Made by a program: the position numbers and the translations under genes. From contig DATLUO010000047.1 in assembly GCA_035533075.1 (NCBI GenBank), positions 1 to 48,690 of the forward strand: DNA of 48,690 nucleotides, given 5' to 3'. Shown piece by piece: positions 16,677-44,253 of the stretch (position 1 is the stretch's first letter; the number at the start of each line of letters is the position of its first letter). Source of the stretch: Pirellulales bacterium. GTDB lineage: Bacteria; Planctomycetota; Planctomycetia; Pirellulales; JAICIG01. The notes beneath the pieces were generated by a model. That model worked only from the letters and a program-made list of their open reading frames with translations. It was not told where the DNA came from and made no database searches.

Positions 16677-16686
16677 GCTTACCAGT

Positions 16687-16783
16687 GTAGGGTGGAGAGA
16701 GCGAGCTTGCGAGCGCCGGCCCACCGTAATCGACGTCGCTAATGGTGGGCCGGCGCTCGCAAGCTCGCTCGCTCCCACCCTAC
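16687..16783. repeat. Dispersed repeat family A, inverted pair (copy A1)
   Basis: Left and right arms share GCGAGCTTGCGAGCGCCGGC and are inverted around a roughly 18-nt spacer that contains CGACGTCGCT. It occupies the divergent promoter region between the sulfatase and the ABC permease. Further copies are at 24734, 32756, 41760 and 44201. Confidence 0.9.
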
Positions 16784-16787
16784 CGCC

Positions 16788-24703: not shown

Positions 24704-24733
24704 CGTGAGCGTGGGAGATTCGAGAGGCGGGAG

Positions 24734-24774
24734 GTAGGGTGGGAGCGAGCGAGCTTGCGAGCGCCGGCCCACCG
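24734..24774 (+). repeat. Dispersed repeat family A, single arm (copy A2)
   Basis: TAGGGTGGG followed by the GCGAGCTTGCGAGCGCCGGC core and CCACCGT, then a CGACGTCG tail as in other copies. It lies just upstream of the large secreted protein gene and directly abuts repeat family B. Confidence 0.88.
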
Positions 24775-24787
24775 TAGACGACGTCGA

Positions 24788-24930
24788 TTATACTTCACGC
24801 GGCCGAGAATGAGACATTTTGCCTCGAGGAGAAGCGGTGGCTGGGGCAGAGCTTGGCCAGATAGCGGCCGGTGCCTTTCAACAGCGTGGCGGCCAAGCGA
24901 TGCCCCGGTGCGTCCAACCGGGGCATCGCC
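24788..24930 (+). repeat. Dispersed repeat family B (copy B1)
   Basis: Begins TATACTTCACGCGGCCGAGA, then GGTGGCTGGGGCAGAG, and ends in a hairpin with GATGCCCCGGT and ACCGGGGCATC arms. The same order occurs at 27549-27663 and 30001-30295. Together with A2 it fills the gap between the large secreted protein and the TPR gene. Confidence 0.85.
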
Positions 24931-24980
24931 CGGCCGCCAAGATGAACGAAGTGCCAGCCTCCACTCGGCCAGGCTCTGCC

Positions 24981-25814
24981 TCAGCCACTCTTCTCGTCGT
25001 CGCTTTTTTCATCGGCCGGCATGTCTTCGTCGCCTTCCTCGGTCACCTTTTCGGCCGGCTTTTTCTCGTCGGCGCCTTCTTCGGCGGCATCGTCTTCCTT
25101 TTCGGCCGGCATTTCATCGGCGGCGTCTTTTTCGTCGGTTTCCTGCTCAGGCTTTTCTGCGAACGGATCGGTCTCGTCGTCGGCCGCCGGCTTCTTCGCC
25201 GGTTTCTCGTCGGCCGGCTCCTCGTCGGCCATTTCCGGCTTGGGCTCTAAAGCGTCAGGTTTTTCGGCCTCGGGTTTTTCGTCCGCTTCCTTGGCCGGCG
25301 AGGGGATTTCCGTGGCTTCTTCCGGCATGAGCACGTTTGGCTCGTTCTTGCGGATCCGCTCATACCGCTCGAACCGCCGCCGCTCGCGACTCTGGTAAGC
25401 GACCAGCCGGGCATTCGAACGGTAACGCTCGATCTGCGCCCTGGCTTGGCCCTGCACCCGCTCCAGCGCCTTGCTCACGGGATAGAAGCGGTCGGTGTCG
25501 GCCATTTCCAATGATGCGCCCGTTTGGAAATCGCGGTGGGCTTCCTGTGGCCGGCCAAGCTTGAAATAGGCCAAGCCGCGATAATAGTAGACCCGCGGAT
25601 CTTTCGAGCCGTTGCGGACCGCCATCGACAAGTCGTCGTAAGCCTCGCGATACGCGCCGGAGTTGTAAGCGTGAACTCCGCTGCCATAAAGTTCGTTGAG
25701 CACATCGAGCTGCGCCTTGGCCGGCCCGACGGTCGTCAACGTCAATCCAAGTGCCAAAGCCCAACCCCAAACGGCCGGCAATCCATAAGCGACGGGGCGC
25801 ATACAGCGAGGCAT
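24981..25814 (-). CDS. Secreted TPR protein with long acidic low-complexity tail
   Basis: The 277-residue product has a signal peptide (LPAVWGWALALGLTLTTVGPAKA) and about two TPR units (YGSGVHAYNSGAYREAYDDLSMAV and RVYYYRGLAYFKLGRPQEAHRDF). An Arg/Tyr-rich helix follows (RSRERRRFERYERIRK-like), then about 110 residues dominated by Glu, Asp, Lys, Pro and Ala in irregular repeats such as EKPE and DEKPA. The start at 25814 is set by an AGGAG 9 nt upstream, not by the earlier in-frame ATG at 25871. TPR domains mediate protein contacts; the acidic tail may bind cations or cell-wall material. Specific function is unknown. Confidence 0.82.
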   Translation of the reverse strand: MPRCMRPVAYGLPAVWGWALALGLTLTTVGPAKAQLDVLNELYGSGVHAYNSGAYREAYDDLSMAVRNGSKDPRVYYYRGLAYFKLGRPQEAHRDFQTGASLEMADTDRFYPVSKALERVQGQARAQIERYRSNARLVAYQSRERRRFERYERIRKNEPNVLMPEEATEIPSPAKEADEKPEAEKPDALEPKPEMADEEPADEKPAKKPAADDETDPFAEKPEQETDEKDAADEMPAEKEDDAAEEGADEKKPAEKVTEEGDEDMPADEKSDDEKSG

Positions 25815-27548: not shown

Positions 27549-27663
27549 TATACTGCACGCAATCGTCGGTGGCTGGGGCAGAAGCTGGCCGAGATCGATC
27601 CGGCCCCTGCAATACGCGCCGCCGGCCAGCGATGCCCCGGTGGTGGCGCTACCGGGGCATCAC
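27549..27663 (+). repeat. Dispersed repeat family B (copy B2)
   Basis: TATACTGCACGC, GGTGGCTGGGGCAGAAGC and a terminal hairpin GATGCCCCGGT/ACCGGGGCATC with loop GGTGGCGCT. The reverse complement of this loop is the empty form of the site into which an element has inserted in copy B3. Confidence 0.85.
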
Positions 27664-27669
27664 TGAGAA

Positions 27670-29318: not shown

Positions 29319-29852
29319 CTACTCGGCCCTGGCGGCTAACGACACGGGTATTTCGTCCGGTTCCGTGAGTTTTGCCCGCAACCGTGCTTTGGCCCGTGCC
29401 AACCGGCTCATCACGGTTCCCGCCGGCAGCCCGAGCCGCTCGGCGATCTCGCGGTAAGAGCATTCTTCGAAGTAGAACATCAGCACGACGATCTTGAAGT
29501 CATCCGGCAGTTCATCGATGGCCTGCTGCAAACGTTCCGGATCGACGACCAGCTCGGTAGGGACTTCCTCCGCAACGGCATCGAGGTCGACATCGAACCC
29601 GCTGGCCGACAGCGGCAATCGCTTGCTTCGGAATTTGGCATAGTTGTGGCGTAGGATGGTAAACAACCAGCCCCGCGCATGTTCCGCTTGGCGGAGTTGC
29701 GCCAGATTCACATGCGCGGCCAGAAACGTCTGCTGCGTCAGGTCTTCGGCATCGCAGACCGCACCGGTCAGTCGGAAAGCATAGCGATAAACCGAGGCAT
29801 GGTGTTCGGCCACGAGTTGACCGATATCCACGGTTGGCATTCTTTCCGTCAT
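29319..29852 (-). CDS. ECF-type RNA polymerase sigma factor
   Basis: The 177-residue protein has region 2 (HHASVYRYAFRLTGAVCDAEDLTQQTFLAAH, then HARGWLFTILRHNYAKF) and region 4 (LQQAIDELPDDFKIVVLMFYFEECSYREIAERLGLPAGTV, then SRLARAKARLR). It directs RNA polymerase to a specific regulon. The next gene encodes its likely membrane anti-sigma partner. ATG 29852 is used; an alternative in-frame ATG lies four codons later. No typical autoregulatory promoter could be picked out by eye in the upstream gap, which is filled by repeats. Confidence 0.94.
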   Translation of the reverse strand: MTERMPTVDIGQLVAEHHASVYRYAFRLTGAVCDAEDLTQQTFLAAHVNLAQLRQAEHARGWLFTILRHNYAKFRSKRLPLSASGFDVDLDAVAEEVPTELVVDPERLQQAIDELPDDFKIVVLMFYFEECSYREIAERLGLPAGTVMSRLARAKARLRAKLTEPDEIPVSLAARAE

Positions 29853-30000
29853 AGGCCGCCTATATCAATAAGAGTCATCCGCGGACCGATTTATTCCCGC
29901 GCCGGAGAAAAACCCCGGATTTCTTCCCCGGACGTATTGTATCGCTTGGGGCGTTGGAGCGCAACTGGCCTTTCGCACGAGTTGGGAGCATAAAACCGGG

Positions 30001-30295
30001 ATATACTTCACGCGGCCGAGAATGAGGCATTTGGCCGACAACTGATGGTGGCTGGGGCAGAGGCTGGCTAGGGCTAGGTTGCGGTTGAGAGTGCCTAAAA
30101 GCGCTGCGGCCAGCCGATGCCCCGGTAGCGCCACCGTAAAGCTTCGCCGAACCCGGTACGCAGGTGCCGTACACCAACCCGAAGCGCTAGCGAGGAACGT
30201 GAAAAAGGCGACAAAACCTCGCTTGCGCTTCGGGTTAGTGTGAAATGGGAACGGGTTCGGCGAAGCTTTACGCGCCACCCACCGGGGCATCGCTG
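30001..30295 (+). repeat. Dispersed repeat family B (copy B3), interrupted by a nested element
   Basis: Starts ATATACTTCACGCGGCCGAG like B1 and continues GGTGGCTGGGGCAGAG. The GATGCCCCGGT arm (30116-30126) and ACCGGGGCATC arm (30281-30291) of its terminal hairpin are separated by a 136-bp insertion plus an 8-bp duplication. With the nested element this fills the 29853-30406 gap, where I see no gene. Confidence 0.85.
30136..30271. mobile_element. 136-bp MITE-like element with 20-bp TIR and 8-bp target duplication
   Basis: Perfect 20-nt terminal inverted repeats (GTAAAGCTTCGCCGAACCCG at 30136-30155, its complement at 30252-30271) bound the element. GCGCCACC directly flanks both ends (30128-30135 and 30272-30279), a target-site duplication. 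Inside is a second hairpin with arms related to CCAACCCGAAGCG...GCGAGG. It has no coding capacity, so a transposase would have to act in trans. Confidence 0.85.
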
Positions 30296-30406
30296 GCCGG
30301 CAGGACGTGTTCGTGATTCCCCAGTCGAACTCGGCCAGCTTTTTTTCCCAAGCCACCGAAAATGTTTCGTTTCTGCCCGCGAAAGGATGACGTCCGGAAC
30401 GAGCGG

Positions 30407-32200
30407 TCAGTGCGCGGCGGCGCCGGTCTGGAACTTATACACGACCGCTTCCAGCGGCACGCCCCACTTGCTCTGGAAGTTGTTGTGGCTCACGCTGTTC
30501 AGCCCAAGCTGGTAGCCGTGCTCCGGTTCCAACGAGACGGGCAGAGTACACGTCAAACCGTCGTCCGACCAGCTCGCCGTTTTCCCGACGGGAATCTTGG
30601 GAAACTCTGCCCCACCGCCGGTCCACGACATTCCTTCGCCCATCGGCACGCTGAAGGTGACACGAAGCGACGCCGTAGTCGGCTCGACGTCGTTGGAACC
30701 GTTTGGCGGATCGAGCGAAACGATGGCCGGCACGCGCACCCGCCGCTCGACCTCCTCCGTCGCGCCTTTCGTGCTGAAGTAGATGGCCGCCGCCGCGGCC
30801 GCCGCGCCCCCTTTGCGGCGGAAGTTCTGATGACTGGAAGAATTGATGCCCAAACGATAGAAGGCGCCTGCTTCCAGCTTGACCGGCAAGACGCACGTTC
30901 GTTTGTCGGCCCAGCGGGCTTGCCGGCTCTTGTCAACCGGTGGAAACAGCGGCGGTCCGCCGGTCCAGCTCATGCCTTGCTCCATGTCTCGATCAAAAGT
31001 GACGGAAATCTCCTTCAACGCGGGATCGACTCCCGTCGCGCCCTGCGGCGGAGATGACTTCACCATGCGCGGATGGGCATCCTTGGGCTTCGCGTTGTCG
31101 GCCGGCGCGGCGGCTTCCTGAGCGATCGCAGCCGGACGGTCGCCGGCGCCGGGCGCCATCGGCAGCAGCAAAACGGCGGTGGCAACGATCGCCAGACGGC
31201 TCGGCCAACCAAAGCGGCGTTTCAGCGGATGGTAGTTCATGATCTCCTCCAATCGGTGTTGCAGGTTTGTGCCCACTTCGAAAATTCCCACCAAGCTGCC
31301 CGACACAAGCGATCGCCCGCGTAACATCGTCAACATACGGACGATCGCTTCGCCGTATGGTTCCGGGGCAATCCCTTCCCGCCGCAGCACGGCTTCGTCG
31401 CACGCGCACTCGCGCTGGTGCCGAAGCTGGCCGTTGGCCCACCACAGAAAGGGATGAAACCAAAACAGGCCCTGGGCGATCGTTTGCAACCAGCCCAGCC
31501 ACGTGTCGCCGCGCTGCCAATGCACCAGTTCGTGGGCCAGTACCGCCCGCAACTCCACGTCGGTCCATCGGGCGAGCAGCCCTTGCGGCAAGACGATCGT
31601 TGGGCGGATGACGCCGAACAGGAAGGGACTCGTCACCATGTCGGCCGCCACAACGTCGGGAACCCGCCGCAGGCCAAGATCGATCGCTATTCGCTCCAAA
31701 GCAATCCGCAACGGGCCTTCATCGACGGTCGGAAAACTTCGCACGGCGCGGACGAGCCGCGCGTACCGGCCCACGACGAAGGCCCAGAACAACAGGCAAC
31801 CCGCGGCCCATAAGCCAAACAGCAGAGGCAGCGACGAGCGAGCATGGCCGGTAATGCGCGGGCCTTGCTGGAACTTCGGCGCGCTTCGAGATTTGTTTTC
31901 GAGCGAGCCACTCGACTCCGCGAGGTCGGGCAACGGCGAGCGCCCTTGGACGTCCCAAGCAGGGAGGCCGATTGCGTCGCGCAACGGGCCGACGCCCCAC
32001 CGCCCGACGCTCACGGGCGTCGCCAGACCGGGCGGCAAAAAGACCTTGGCCAGCACCAGCAGCCAGAGCGCGTGGCGCAGCCGCGGCGACGCCGATCGCA
32101 GCAGCCACGTCAAGGCGGCAACCAACGCGACCAGCAGGGCCAACTGCCAACTCGCCGCCACGATCCATACCCACCAGTGCCGCAGAACAGGATCGAACAT
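30407..32200 (-). CDS. BlaR1/MecR1-like M56 membrane metalloprotease with Ig-like tail
   Basis: The 597-residue protein has an M56 domain: helices near 10-35, 40-60 and 120-145, zinc motif H223-E-L-V-H227, and RQREC-like segment with E264 followed by CDEAVL. A helix near 365-385 ends the peptidase part. Instead of a penicillin-binding sensor, the C-terminus has two related domains of about 90 residues (starting near 405 and 500) with SPPxGATGVDP/DPPNGSNDVEP and ISVTFDRDMEQGMSWTGG-like blocks, as in bacterial Ig-like (SbsA/Big_5 type) domains. It lies 2 nt after a BlaI-type repressor gene. I infer that it cleaves or inactivates that repressor on sensing an envelope signal. ATG 32200 follows a GAGGTGA. 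Confidence 0.88.
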   Translation of the reverse strand: MFDPVLRHWWVWIVAASWQLALLVALVAALTWLLRSASPRLRHALWLLVLAKVFLPPGLATPVSVGRWGVGPLRDAIGLPAWDVQGRSPLPDLAESSGSLENKSRSAPKFQQGPRITGHARSSLPLLFGLWAAGCLLFWAFVVGRYARLVRAVRSFPTVDEGPLRIALERIAIDLGLRRVPDVVAADMVTSPFLFGVIRPTIVLPQGLLARWTDVELRAVLAHELVHWQRGDTWLGWLQTIAQGLFWFHPFLWWANGQLRHQRECACDEAVLRREGIAPEPYGEAIVRMLTMLRGRSLVSGSLVGIFEVGTNLQHRLEEIMNYHPLKRRFGWPSRLAIVATAVLLLPMAPGAGDRPAAIAQEAAAPADNAKPKDAHPRMVKSSPPQGATGVDPALKEISVTFDRDMEQGMSWTGGPPLFPPVDKSRQARWADKRTCVLPVKLEAGAFYRLGINSSSHQNFRRKGGAAAAAAAIYFSTKGATEEVERRVRVPAIVSLDPPNGSNDVEPTTASLRVTFSVPMGEGMSWTGGGAEFPKIPVGKTASWSDDGLTCTLPVSLEPEHGYQLGLNSVSHNNFQSKWGVPLEAVVYKFQTGAAAH

Positions 32201-32202
32201 GG

Positions 32203-32625
32203 TCACCTCGGTCTTTCCTGGCCGCGTTTCGTGCCCGGTAGACTTCGTTTCTCGTCGAGCCGGCGCTTGAGCTCGCGGATTTCGACGTCGGAGAGATCGG
32301 CCTCGTCGATGAAATGGGCCAGCACCGGCGACAACGCCTCGCTGGCCAGTTTTTGGAACACGCCGCGCACCTCCTGGCGGGTCATGGCTTCTCGATCGAC
32401 GGCCGGCCGATAGAGATACGAATTTCCCACCTGATCGTAGGCCAGCGCCTCCTTGGCGACGAGACGGGAGAGGAGCGTCTTGACGGTCTTGTAGGCCCAG
32501 CCGCGCCGCTTTGGCAGCGCGGCGTAGAGGTCGCGGGCGGCCATCGGCCCGCGCTCCCAAAAGAGCTTCATCACTTCCCATTCCGCGGCCGAGAGGGCGA
32601 CCGGCGGTTTTTCGCGCGAGGACAC
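32203..32625 (-). CDS. BlaI/MecI-family transcriptional repressor
   Basis: The 140-residue protein has the winged-helix start LSAAEWEVMKLFWERGPMAARDLYAALPKRRGWAYKTVKTLLSRLVAKEAL and the dimerisation/cleavage region (YLYRPAVDREAMTRQEV...VLAHFIDEADLSDVEI). Such repressors silence their own operon until the M56 partner acts. The partner gene follows within 2 nt. A basic tail (KRGQERPR) ends the protein. A weak dyad 47-62 nt upstream of the start could be its operator. No beta-lactamase gene is nearby, so the regulon is unknown. Confidence 0.93.
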   Translation of the reverse strand: MSSREKPPVALSAAEWEVMKLFWERGPMAARDLYAALPKRRGWAYKTVKTLLSRLVAKEALAYDQVGNSYLYRPAVDREAMTRQEVRGVFQKLASEALSPVLAHFIDEADLSDVEIRELKRRLDEKRSLPGTKRGQERPR

Positions 32626-32687: not shown

Positions 32688-32755
32688 CATTGTCAATAGC
32701 GCAGGGCAATTGCCCTCGTGATCCGGTGAAGAAACGGGCCTGCGCGGCAGATCCG

Positions 32756-32797
32756 CAGGGTGGGACCAGCGAGCTTGCGAGCGCCGGCCCACCCTAC
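32756..32797 (+). repeat. Dispersed repeat family A, single arm (copy A3)
   Basis: CAGGGTGGGACCAGCGAGCT leads into the shared core and ends CCACCCTAC, so the unit is itself nearly bounded by inverted GGGTGGG/CCACCC. It lies between the 3' end of the DUF1559 gene and the BlaI-like gene. Confidence 0.88.
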
Positions 32798-32835
32798 GAG
32801 TTCATGCACGATCTGCTTGAAGGACGAACCCGAGA

Positions 32836-35790: not shown

Positions 35791-35897
35791 GGAGTTCGCG
35801 CGACTGTGCGTTTTAGCTCATCCCACAATTGCGGACCGACGATAGGCGCCATAGGCAGGGTAGAGGGGGGAGGCCATTACCCCGTTACTGGTAGTGT

Positions 35898-36015
35898 CCT
35901 AATAATGTGTTGCTGGCCCACACTAACCCGAAGCGTCAGCGAGGAAATGCGGTGATTCTGCCTCGCTGACGCTTCGGGTTAGTGTCTCTTTGGACACGAT
36001 CAACACACTATTAGG
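35898..36015. mobile_element. 118-bp inverted-repeat element abutting a truncated ABC ATPase
   Basis: The ends are CCTAATAATGTGTTG (35898-35912) and CAACACACTATTAGG (36001-36015), inverted with 14 of 15 matches. Inside is a 24-bp perfect hairpin with arms starting CACTAACCCGAAGCGTCAGC, the same hairpin family found inside the element at 30136. The right end touches the first surviving codons of the ATPase fragment. No target duplication is visible, consistent with a deletion on the left. Confidence 0.7.
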
Positions 36016-36448
36016 CGCCCAGTCTCGGGTGCGGCTGCTGGAGGTCGTGCGGCAGCAGCTCGCCGATGGGACGTGCGTCTTGTATACCACGCATTACCTG
36101 GAAGAAGCCGAGACGCTCTGCGATCGGATCGCGATCATCGATCACGGCCAGATCATTGCCGCAGGGACGTTGGCCGAATTGCGTGGCAGAGTCGGCGAAC
36201 GGGACGCGGTCCGGCTGGCCGGCCGGTTCGACCCGGCCCGTGAGGCACTGCAGCAGATTGAGGGCGCCGACGTGGTTCAGGCCGAAGCGGTAGAATTGCG
36301 GCTCGCGCTGGCAGACGCCTCCCGCAAACTGCCCGAACTGTTTACCGCACTGGCCGGCGCCGGCGCGGAAATTCGCGAGACGACCGTGACCCGGCCGAGC
36401 CTGGAGAGCCTGTTTATCCACCTCACGGGCAAAGAACTGCGGGAATAA
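36016..36448 (+). pseudogene. ABC transporter ATP-binding protein, C-terminal fragment
   Basis: Homology begins at about PQSRVRLLEVVRQQLADGTCVLYTTHYLEEAE, i.e. the D-loop/H-loop part of an ABC-2 exporter ATPase (H-loop His in TTHYLEEAE), and continues through DRIAIIDHGQIIAAGTL and the C-terminal domain. The Walker A, Q-loop, signature and Walker B parts are missing, and no trace of them is seen to the left. It ends 2 nt before the permease gene, which must have been its partner. The frame is open from an ATG at 35990 inside the element, but such a product could not bind ATP. Confidence 0.85.
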
Positions 36449-41746: not shown

Positions 41747-41759
41747 GTTTCTTCACGTG

Positions 41760-41855
41760 TAGGGTGGGACCAGCGAGCTTGCGAGCGCCGGCCCACCGTG
41801 AACAACGTCGCGCCGATGGTGGGCCGGCGCTCGCAAGCTCGCTGGTCCCACCCTA
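41760..41855. repeat. Dispersed repeat family A, inverted pair (copy A4)
   Basis: Two 38-nt arms (41760-41797 and 41818-41855) starting TAGGGTGGGACCAGCGAGCT are perfect inverted repeats around a 20-nt spacer. In RNA this would be a very stable hairpin between two genes of the same direction. Confidence 0.92.
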
Positions 41856-41869
41856 CATGACCATAACCC

Positions 41870-44154: not shown

Positions 44155-44200
44155 TCGAACAACCTCCGTTGGGAAAACATCTCGATCAAAAATAGCTGCG

Positions 44201-44253
44201 TAGGGTGGGACCAGCGAGCTTGCGAGCGCCGGCCCACCGTCAACGACGTCGCT
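44201..44253 (+). repeat. Dispersed repeat family A, single arm (copy A5)
   Basis: TAGGGTGGGACCAGCGAGCT plus the shared core, CCACCGT and a CGACGTCGCTT tail. It separates the two parts of the DGPF/DoxX cluster and may weaken co-transcription. Confidence 0.9.

What the first reader, a model, noticed from the sequence alone, without database searches (positions are those of the whole stretch)
30128..30279. Element caught inserted in a family B hairpin, with empty site preserved in copy B2
A 136-bp element with perfect 20-nt terminal inverted repeats is flanked by GCGCCACC duplications inside the hairpin loop of B3. The reverse complement of the B2 loop (AGCGCCACC between the same arms) shows the site before insertion. 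This proves mobility and gives exact ends and an 8-bp target duplication.
Basis: seen in the sequence. Interest (0 to 1): 0.65.

Follow-up and report, generated by a model that had tools for sequence, protein, structure and literature searches.

The report
IS66-type miniature transposon in a hairpin
A 136-base mobile DNA fragment with no genes of its own, apparently moved by an IS66-type transposase encoded elsewhere in the same planctomycete genome, has landed inside another repeated hairpin, and it carries in its middle a third kind of repeat that a second, unrelated miniature transposon also carries.

Summary
Window 30136-30271 is a 136-bp element with perfect 20-nt inverted ends, flanked by an 8-bp duplication (GCGCCACC) in the loop of a dispersed hairpin. 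Both refutation tests were passed. The genome (8.54 Mb) holds 35 full-length copies; 24 have exact and 26 at least 7/8-matching 8-bp duplications, and seven copies are identical. The autonomous partner was found: one 1,864-bp insertion sequence with the same 20-nt ends, an 8-bp duplication and a single 556-aa IS66 transposase. So this is a MITE of the IS66 family. The better empty site is not B2, which lacks one C beside the site, but a paralogue on contig C280. Movement is inferred from sequence; present activity was not tested.

The parts
30128..30135 (.). left target-site duplication GCGCCACC
   Evidence: empty-site paralogue with one copy of the octamer
30136..30155 (+). left terminal inverted repeat GTAAAGCTTCGCCGAACCCG, identical to the ends of the autonomous IS66 element C288:22812-24675
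30156..30170 (.). spacer between left end and palindromic core
   Evidence: lies outside the stretch (36-107) that most matches in other genera cover
30171..30242 (.). palindromic core ACACCAACCCGAAGCGCTAGCGAGG..CCTCGCTTGCGCTTCGGGTTAGTGT, homologous to free-standing palindromes in this and related genomes and to the core of a second MITE family
   Evidence: folds with the ends into one long hairpin, -85.1 kcal/mol, z -11
30252..30271 (-). right terminal inverted repeat
30272..30279 (.). right target-site duplication GCGCCACC
30048..30127 (+). left part of the host repeat (family B copy B3)
   Evidence: 44 places in the genome, nine of them over the full 88-base query at 80% or more (the window included)
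30280..30316 (+). right part of the host repeat, continuing the family B hairpin after the insertion
   Evidence: aligns on from the left part in L095, L096 and L098 once the insertion is taken out
27611..27661 (-). copy B2 of the host hairpin, uninterrupted; differs from the B3 empty site by one C at the junction
35915..35990 (.). second copy of the palindromic core in this window, outside any IS66-type ends

Best explanation
Window 30136-30271 is a non-autonomous miniature transposon (MITE) of the IS66 family. It codes for nothing of its own. A transposase of the kind encoded by the single intact IS66 element of this genome (C288, 556-aa DDE transposase, identical 20-nt ends) binds the ends and inserts the element, which makes an 8-bp staggered cut that is filled in as the duplication. 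Between the ends lies a palindrome of a dispersed family that also occurs without these ends, so the element is a chimera of IS66 ends and a REP-like hairpin. Here it jumped into the loop of a family B hairpin. Shown: ends, duplications, copy number, autonomous partner, empty-site paralogues, homology of the core. Inferred: that this transposase does the moving, the order of assembly, and the mechanism of cutting and filling.
For: 35 full-length copies 92-100% identical to the query; 24 of 35 with exact and 26 of 35 with at least 7/8 8-bp duplications, whereas no cross-pairing of left and right flanks from different copies (1,190 pairs) reached 8/8 and 5 reached 7/8. IS66 element C288:22812-24675: 1,864 bp, same 20-nt ends, left flank AACCAGCG and, across the contig break, C226 right flank AACCAGCG, the 140-base overlap being identical. 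Its protein matches PF03050 (1.1e-57) and NF033517 (3.9e-89), and a search with it finds no other full-length relative in the genome. Empty site: L095, 125 nt. Core homology: the listed matches outside this genome lie in the interior (mostly query 36-107), none over the full element.
Against: The autonomous element shares only its outer 20-22 bp with the MITE, so the MITE may descend from, or be moved by, a lost relative. No copy of the same locus with and without the element was seen in related strains; no second genome with the family was found. Nine of 35 copies have weak duplications (1-6 of 8), which fits age or recombination but was not resolved. The assembly is in 296 contigs, several of which end in this repeat.
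Confidence: 0.92

Rival explanations
1. The element is a REP/REPIN-type palindrome spread by a RAYT (Y1) transposase, and the 8-bp repeats are incidental.
For: The interior is a dispersed palindrome, and the genome has 12 Y1_Tnp places.
Against: None of the 12 Y1_Tnp loci holds a core arm within 2 substitutions. REP elements are not known for target duplications (general knowledge), whereas 24 of 35 copies have exact 8-bp ones.
Confidence: 0.03
2. Palindrome or recombination artefact: a long hairpin produced by slippage or assembly, not transposition.
For: The copy is a near-perfect foldback, sits within another palindrome, and contigs break in this repeat family.
Against: 35 copies with duplications of constant length 8; the base beside the octamer matches in only 5 of 24. 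An uninterrupted paralogue with a single octamer exists.
Confidence: 0.02
3. It is a MITE, but of another DDE family with 8-bp duplications, and the IS66 match of the ends is secondary capture.
For: The MITE and the C288 element agree only over the terminal 20-22 bp.
Against: Twenty of 20 identical bases at both ends, equal duplication length, and it is the only intact element with these ends that was found in the genome.
Confidence: 0.03

Closest known systems
IS66 family, single-ORF (ISBst12) group
   Same: One DDE_Tnp_IS66 transposase gene, GTAA ends, 8-bp duplications. ISDge4 of Deinococcus geothermalis (PMC12898284, passages read) also has one ORF, ends starting GTGAC/GTAAC and an 8-bp repeat.
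   Different: The window element has no gene. The autonomous one here is 1,864 bp with perfect 20-nt ends.
Bacterial MITEs with a named parent, such as MITEPsy1 (100 nt, parent ISPsy2)
   Same: Small, non-coding, with the ends of an autonomous insertion sequence (PMC3189936, passages read).
   Different: MITEPsy1 makes 4-nt duplications at CTAG or YTAA and is marked 'IS5?' there; here the parent is IS66 with 8 bp. In-vivo transposition was shown there, not here.
QMITE2 of Coxiella, a MITE holding a GTAG-type REP that served as a target of IS1111
   Same: A MITE combined with a REP-type palindrome and used as a landing site (review PMC10969869, passages read).
   Different: Different ends and palindrome; here the same palindrome is shared by two MITE families with different ends.
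IS66 element of Singulisphaera sp. GP187 (L196)
   Same: 66% protein identity over 556 aa; ends GTAAGCCTTCGCCTAACCCG resemble these.
   Different: Flanking octamers there match only 2 of 8; no MITE was looked for in it.

Membership tests
MITE | short, multi-copy, no coding capacity, terminal inverted repeats | tested here: met
   136 bp, 35 full-length copies, perfect 20-nt ends. The 163-aa minus-strand frame over 29865-30356 spans host DNA and is taken as chance; it was not tested further.
MITE | target-site duplication | tested here: met
   24 of 35 exact, 26 of 35 at least 7/8; cross-pair control 0 of 1,190 at 8/8
MITE | autonomous element with matching ends in the genome | tested here: met
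   C288:22812-24675
IS66 (autonomous partner) | IS66-type DDE transposase | tested here: met
   PF03050 1.1e-57, NF033517 299.4 bits against a cut-off of 180; catalytic residues were not checked one by one
IS66 (autonomous partner) | ends starting GTAA and 8-bp duplication | tested here: met
   37 of 90 planctomycete IS66 loci scanned gave 7-8 of 8 duplications, but that scan required GTA..TAC ends
IS66 (autonomous partner) | actual transposition of the MITE by this transposase | not testable with these tools
   needs an assay
REP/REPIN with RAYT | association of the palindrome with a Y1 (RAYT) transposase gene | tested here: not met
   0 of 12 Y1_Tnp loci hold a core arm
Second MITE family (CCCGGATTATTCA ends) | constant-length target duplication | tested here: met
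   10 of 13 copies with exact 4-bp duplications, mostly YTAR; cross-pair control 14 of 156

The most novel reading that the evidence does not exclude
The palindromic core is a cargo that has been taken up more than once by different transposon ends. In this genome it fills an IS66-type MITE (8-bp duplications) and a second MITE with unrelated ends (4-bp YTAR-like duplications), while in related genera it stands alone or, in one sister genus, within ends like those of the second kind. If so, hairpins of this family either make good MITE cores (for example by aiding foldback formation or transposase assembly) or confer something that keeps such MITEs, such as acting as an RNA terminator or stabiliser.
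Probability: 0.3. Interest if true: 0.55.

Novelty: new variant of a known kind. Interest (0 to 1): 0.38.

Why it matters
It supplies a MITE family with its likely transposase, exact ends, duplication length and 35 sites, in a family (IS66) for which my literature searches showed no MITE (listings, and passages of a few papers). It makes target choice of this IS66 element testable: TTRC four bases outside the duplication. The shared core suggests how a dispersed bacterial palindrome can spread by riding in DDE transposon ends, with no RAYT seen beside it.

Tried and rejected
Rfam search of the window: only a tRNA. RAYT origin of the core: 0 of 12 loci. Hairpin loops as the preferred target: of 26 rejoined sites the window's is the only one with strong folding (z -4.86; next -1.96; mononucleotide shuffles), so the hairpin insertion looks like an exception. 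Target motif: orientation-free information in the 20 bases beside the octamer was 6.82 bits against 2.84 +- 0.38 for 27 sites, and 5.97 against 3.47 +- 0.51 for the 20 sites left after dropping 7 with homologous flanks; 0 of 1,000 controls reached it in either. TTRC/GYAA at offset 8: 14 of 27 and 8 of 20, against at most 1 at any of the 16 other offsets. Against it: in 9 held-out copies with poor duplications 2 had it, one of these in flanks related to a used site; in other planctomycete IS66 elements 1 of 37, so it is not a family rule; the wider resemblance of targets to the element's own end was not significant against flank controls (z 1.6 and 1.2), though 3 and 4 of 500 shuffled ends did as well; the window's own site lacks it. 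Spread outside this genome: the 18-nt end, up to 1 mismatch, occurs once each in 5 of 395 other genomes of the order against 83 places here, and the reversed control does about as well in the others; no plasmid match, no viral contig. The transposase of the second MITE family was not sought.

Full report
What is there. Window 30128-30279 reads GCGCCACC, a 136-bp element with perfect 20-nt inverted ends (GTAAAGCTTCGCCGAACCCG), GCGCCACC. The 20-mer is found nowhere else in the window even with three mismatches; 0 expected. As a single strand the element folds into one long hairpin (-85.1 kcal/mol, z -11).

The host. The insertion splits a dispersed repeat (family B). The left half of B3 finds 44 places in the genome. 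With the element and one octamer taken out, the 125-nt site aligns over its full length at 86.4% to C280 (L095), where GCGCCACC occurs once and runs straight into CACCG; C268 (L106) has the same junction. B2 in the window is a near match but one C short. The site lies between the 177-aa sigma-70-like gene (29319-29852, minus) and the 724-aa BlaR1/M56-peptidase-like gene (30407-32581, minus).

Other copies. The genome search gave 42 + 46 end matches (up to 3 mismatches; 1 + 2 for the reversed control). Thirty-five copies are full length or nearly so; seven, the window's included, are identical over 136 bp. Of 35, 24 have exact 8-bp duplications and 26 at least 7 of 8; the other nine have 1-6 of 8. 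Pairing left and right flanks of different copies gave none at 8/8 and 5 at 7/8 of 1,190 pairs. Truncated copies and copies cut by contig ends also exist and are not in the 35.

The autonomous partner. C288 ends in a 1,864-bp element with the same ends. It encodes one 556-aa protein matching the IS66 transposase families. Its left flank is AACCAGCG; contig C226 starts with the identical last 140 bases of the element and continues with AACCAGCG. A search with the protein finds no other full-length relative here, only three partial matches, one of which (C226) is the end of this same copy. The closest named relatives are planctomycete: Singulisphaera sp. GP187, 66% identity, with similar GTAA ends but no matching octamer. 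The MITE and the autonomous element agree only over the outer 20-22 bp.

The core. In 57 genomes searched (this one and 56 relatives), 18 match, but the listed matches outside this genome cover the interior, mostly positions 36-107, and none is full length (the list was cut). Of 11 loci inspected, most show palindromes with unrelated flanks, and G001 (L079, the one genome of the same family) shows second-family-like ends around the core. In this genome the core arm occurs 102 + 100 times at up to one mismatch, control 0 + 0. Sixteen second-family elements with ends near GGATTATTCAYGGCC all carried the core (16 of 16); with stricter ends, 10 of 13 have exact 4-bp duplications, mostly YTAR (CTAG, TTAG, CTAA, TTAA), against 14 of 156 cross-pairs. 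That YTAR recalls IS5-type elements is from memory plus MITEPsy1 (PMC3189936, passages); no transposase was sought for it. On C182 a second-family element lies in the arm of an IS66-MITE with CTAG on both sides, and the related contig C183 has the same MITE uninterrupted. The two contigs differ by other bases, so they are paralogues or strain variants.

Target choice. Among 27 sites with good duplications (26 MITEs and the autonomous copy), TTRC (or GYAA on the other side) stands exactly four bases outside the octamer in 14; among 20 with unrelated flanks in 8. At the other 16 offsets tested the count is 0 or 1. The motif shares TTAC with the element's own end, but a wider resemblance test was not significant against flank controls. 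It is not a rule of the family: 1 of 37 other planctomycete IS66 sites. The window's site lacks it.

How it most likely works. The IS66 transposase recognises the 20-nt ends, inserts the MITE with an 8-bp stagger, and repair duplicates the octamer (inferred from the anatomy and from what is known of DDE transposases). The MITE arose when IS66 ends came to flank a palindrome of the dispersed family; the order of assembly is unknown. Present activity is not shown; seven identical copies suggest recent spread.

Literature. Searches of the held library for IS66 with MITE terms, with Planctomycetes and for IS66 ends or target choice showed no IS66 MITE and no report of this palindrome in the listings; passages read in PMC9769881, PMC3189936, PMC12898284, PMC3733652 and PMC10969869 did not either. 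The family review 'Route 66' (Gourbeyre 2010; seen only as a reference, not looked up) and the IS679 paper (Han 2001; not held) were not read, so an earlier description there or in ISfinder cannot be excluded.

Noticed in passing
window 24837-24988, 27569-27665, 30048-30316; L095 1426-1582: Family B matches itself on both strands at about 70% over roughly 110 nt, so each copy is itself a palindromic unit of about 157 bp; its own means of spread is unknown.
   Followed up: partly
window 24789-24823 and 30002-30036: A 35-nt repeat (TATACTTCACGCGGCCGAGAATGAG..) lies just upstream of two family B copies, 94% identical, perhaps a promoter-like or longer repeat unit.
   Followed up: no
window 35880-36030: The core copy here is bracketed by CCTAATAATGTGTTG / CAACACACTATTAGG, possibly a third set of transposon-like ends around the same palindrome.
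   Followed up: no
L077 (C182:191-462) against L032 (C183:18367-18502): Two closely related loci with and without a second-family MITE inside the IS66-MITE arm, a ready-made filled and empty pair.
   Followed up: partly
flanks of MITE copies: Many MITE copies sit in or beside other related repeats, so repeats of several families cluster in this genome.
   Followed up: partly
window 16680-16787, 24728-24788, 32748-32808, 41752-41857, 44193-44253: Another dispersed palindrome (AGGGTGGGACCAGCGAGCTTGCGAGCGCCGGCCCACC), five copies in register in the window plus inverted ones.
   Followed up: no
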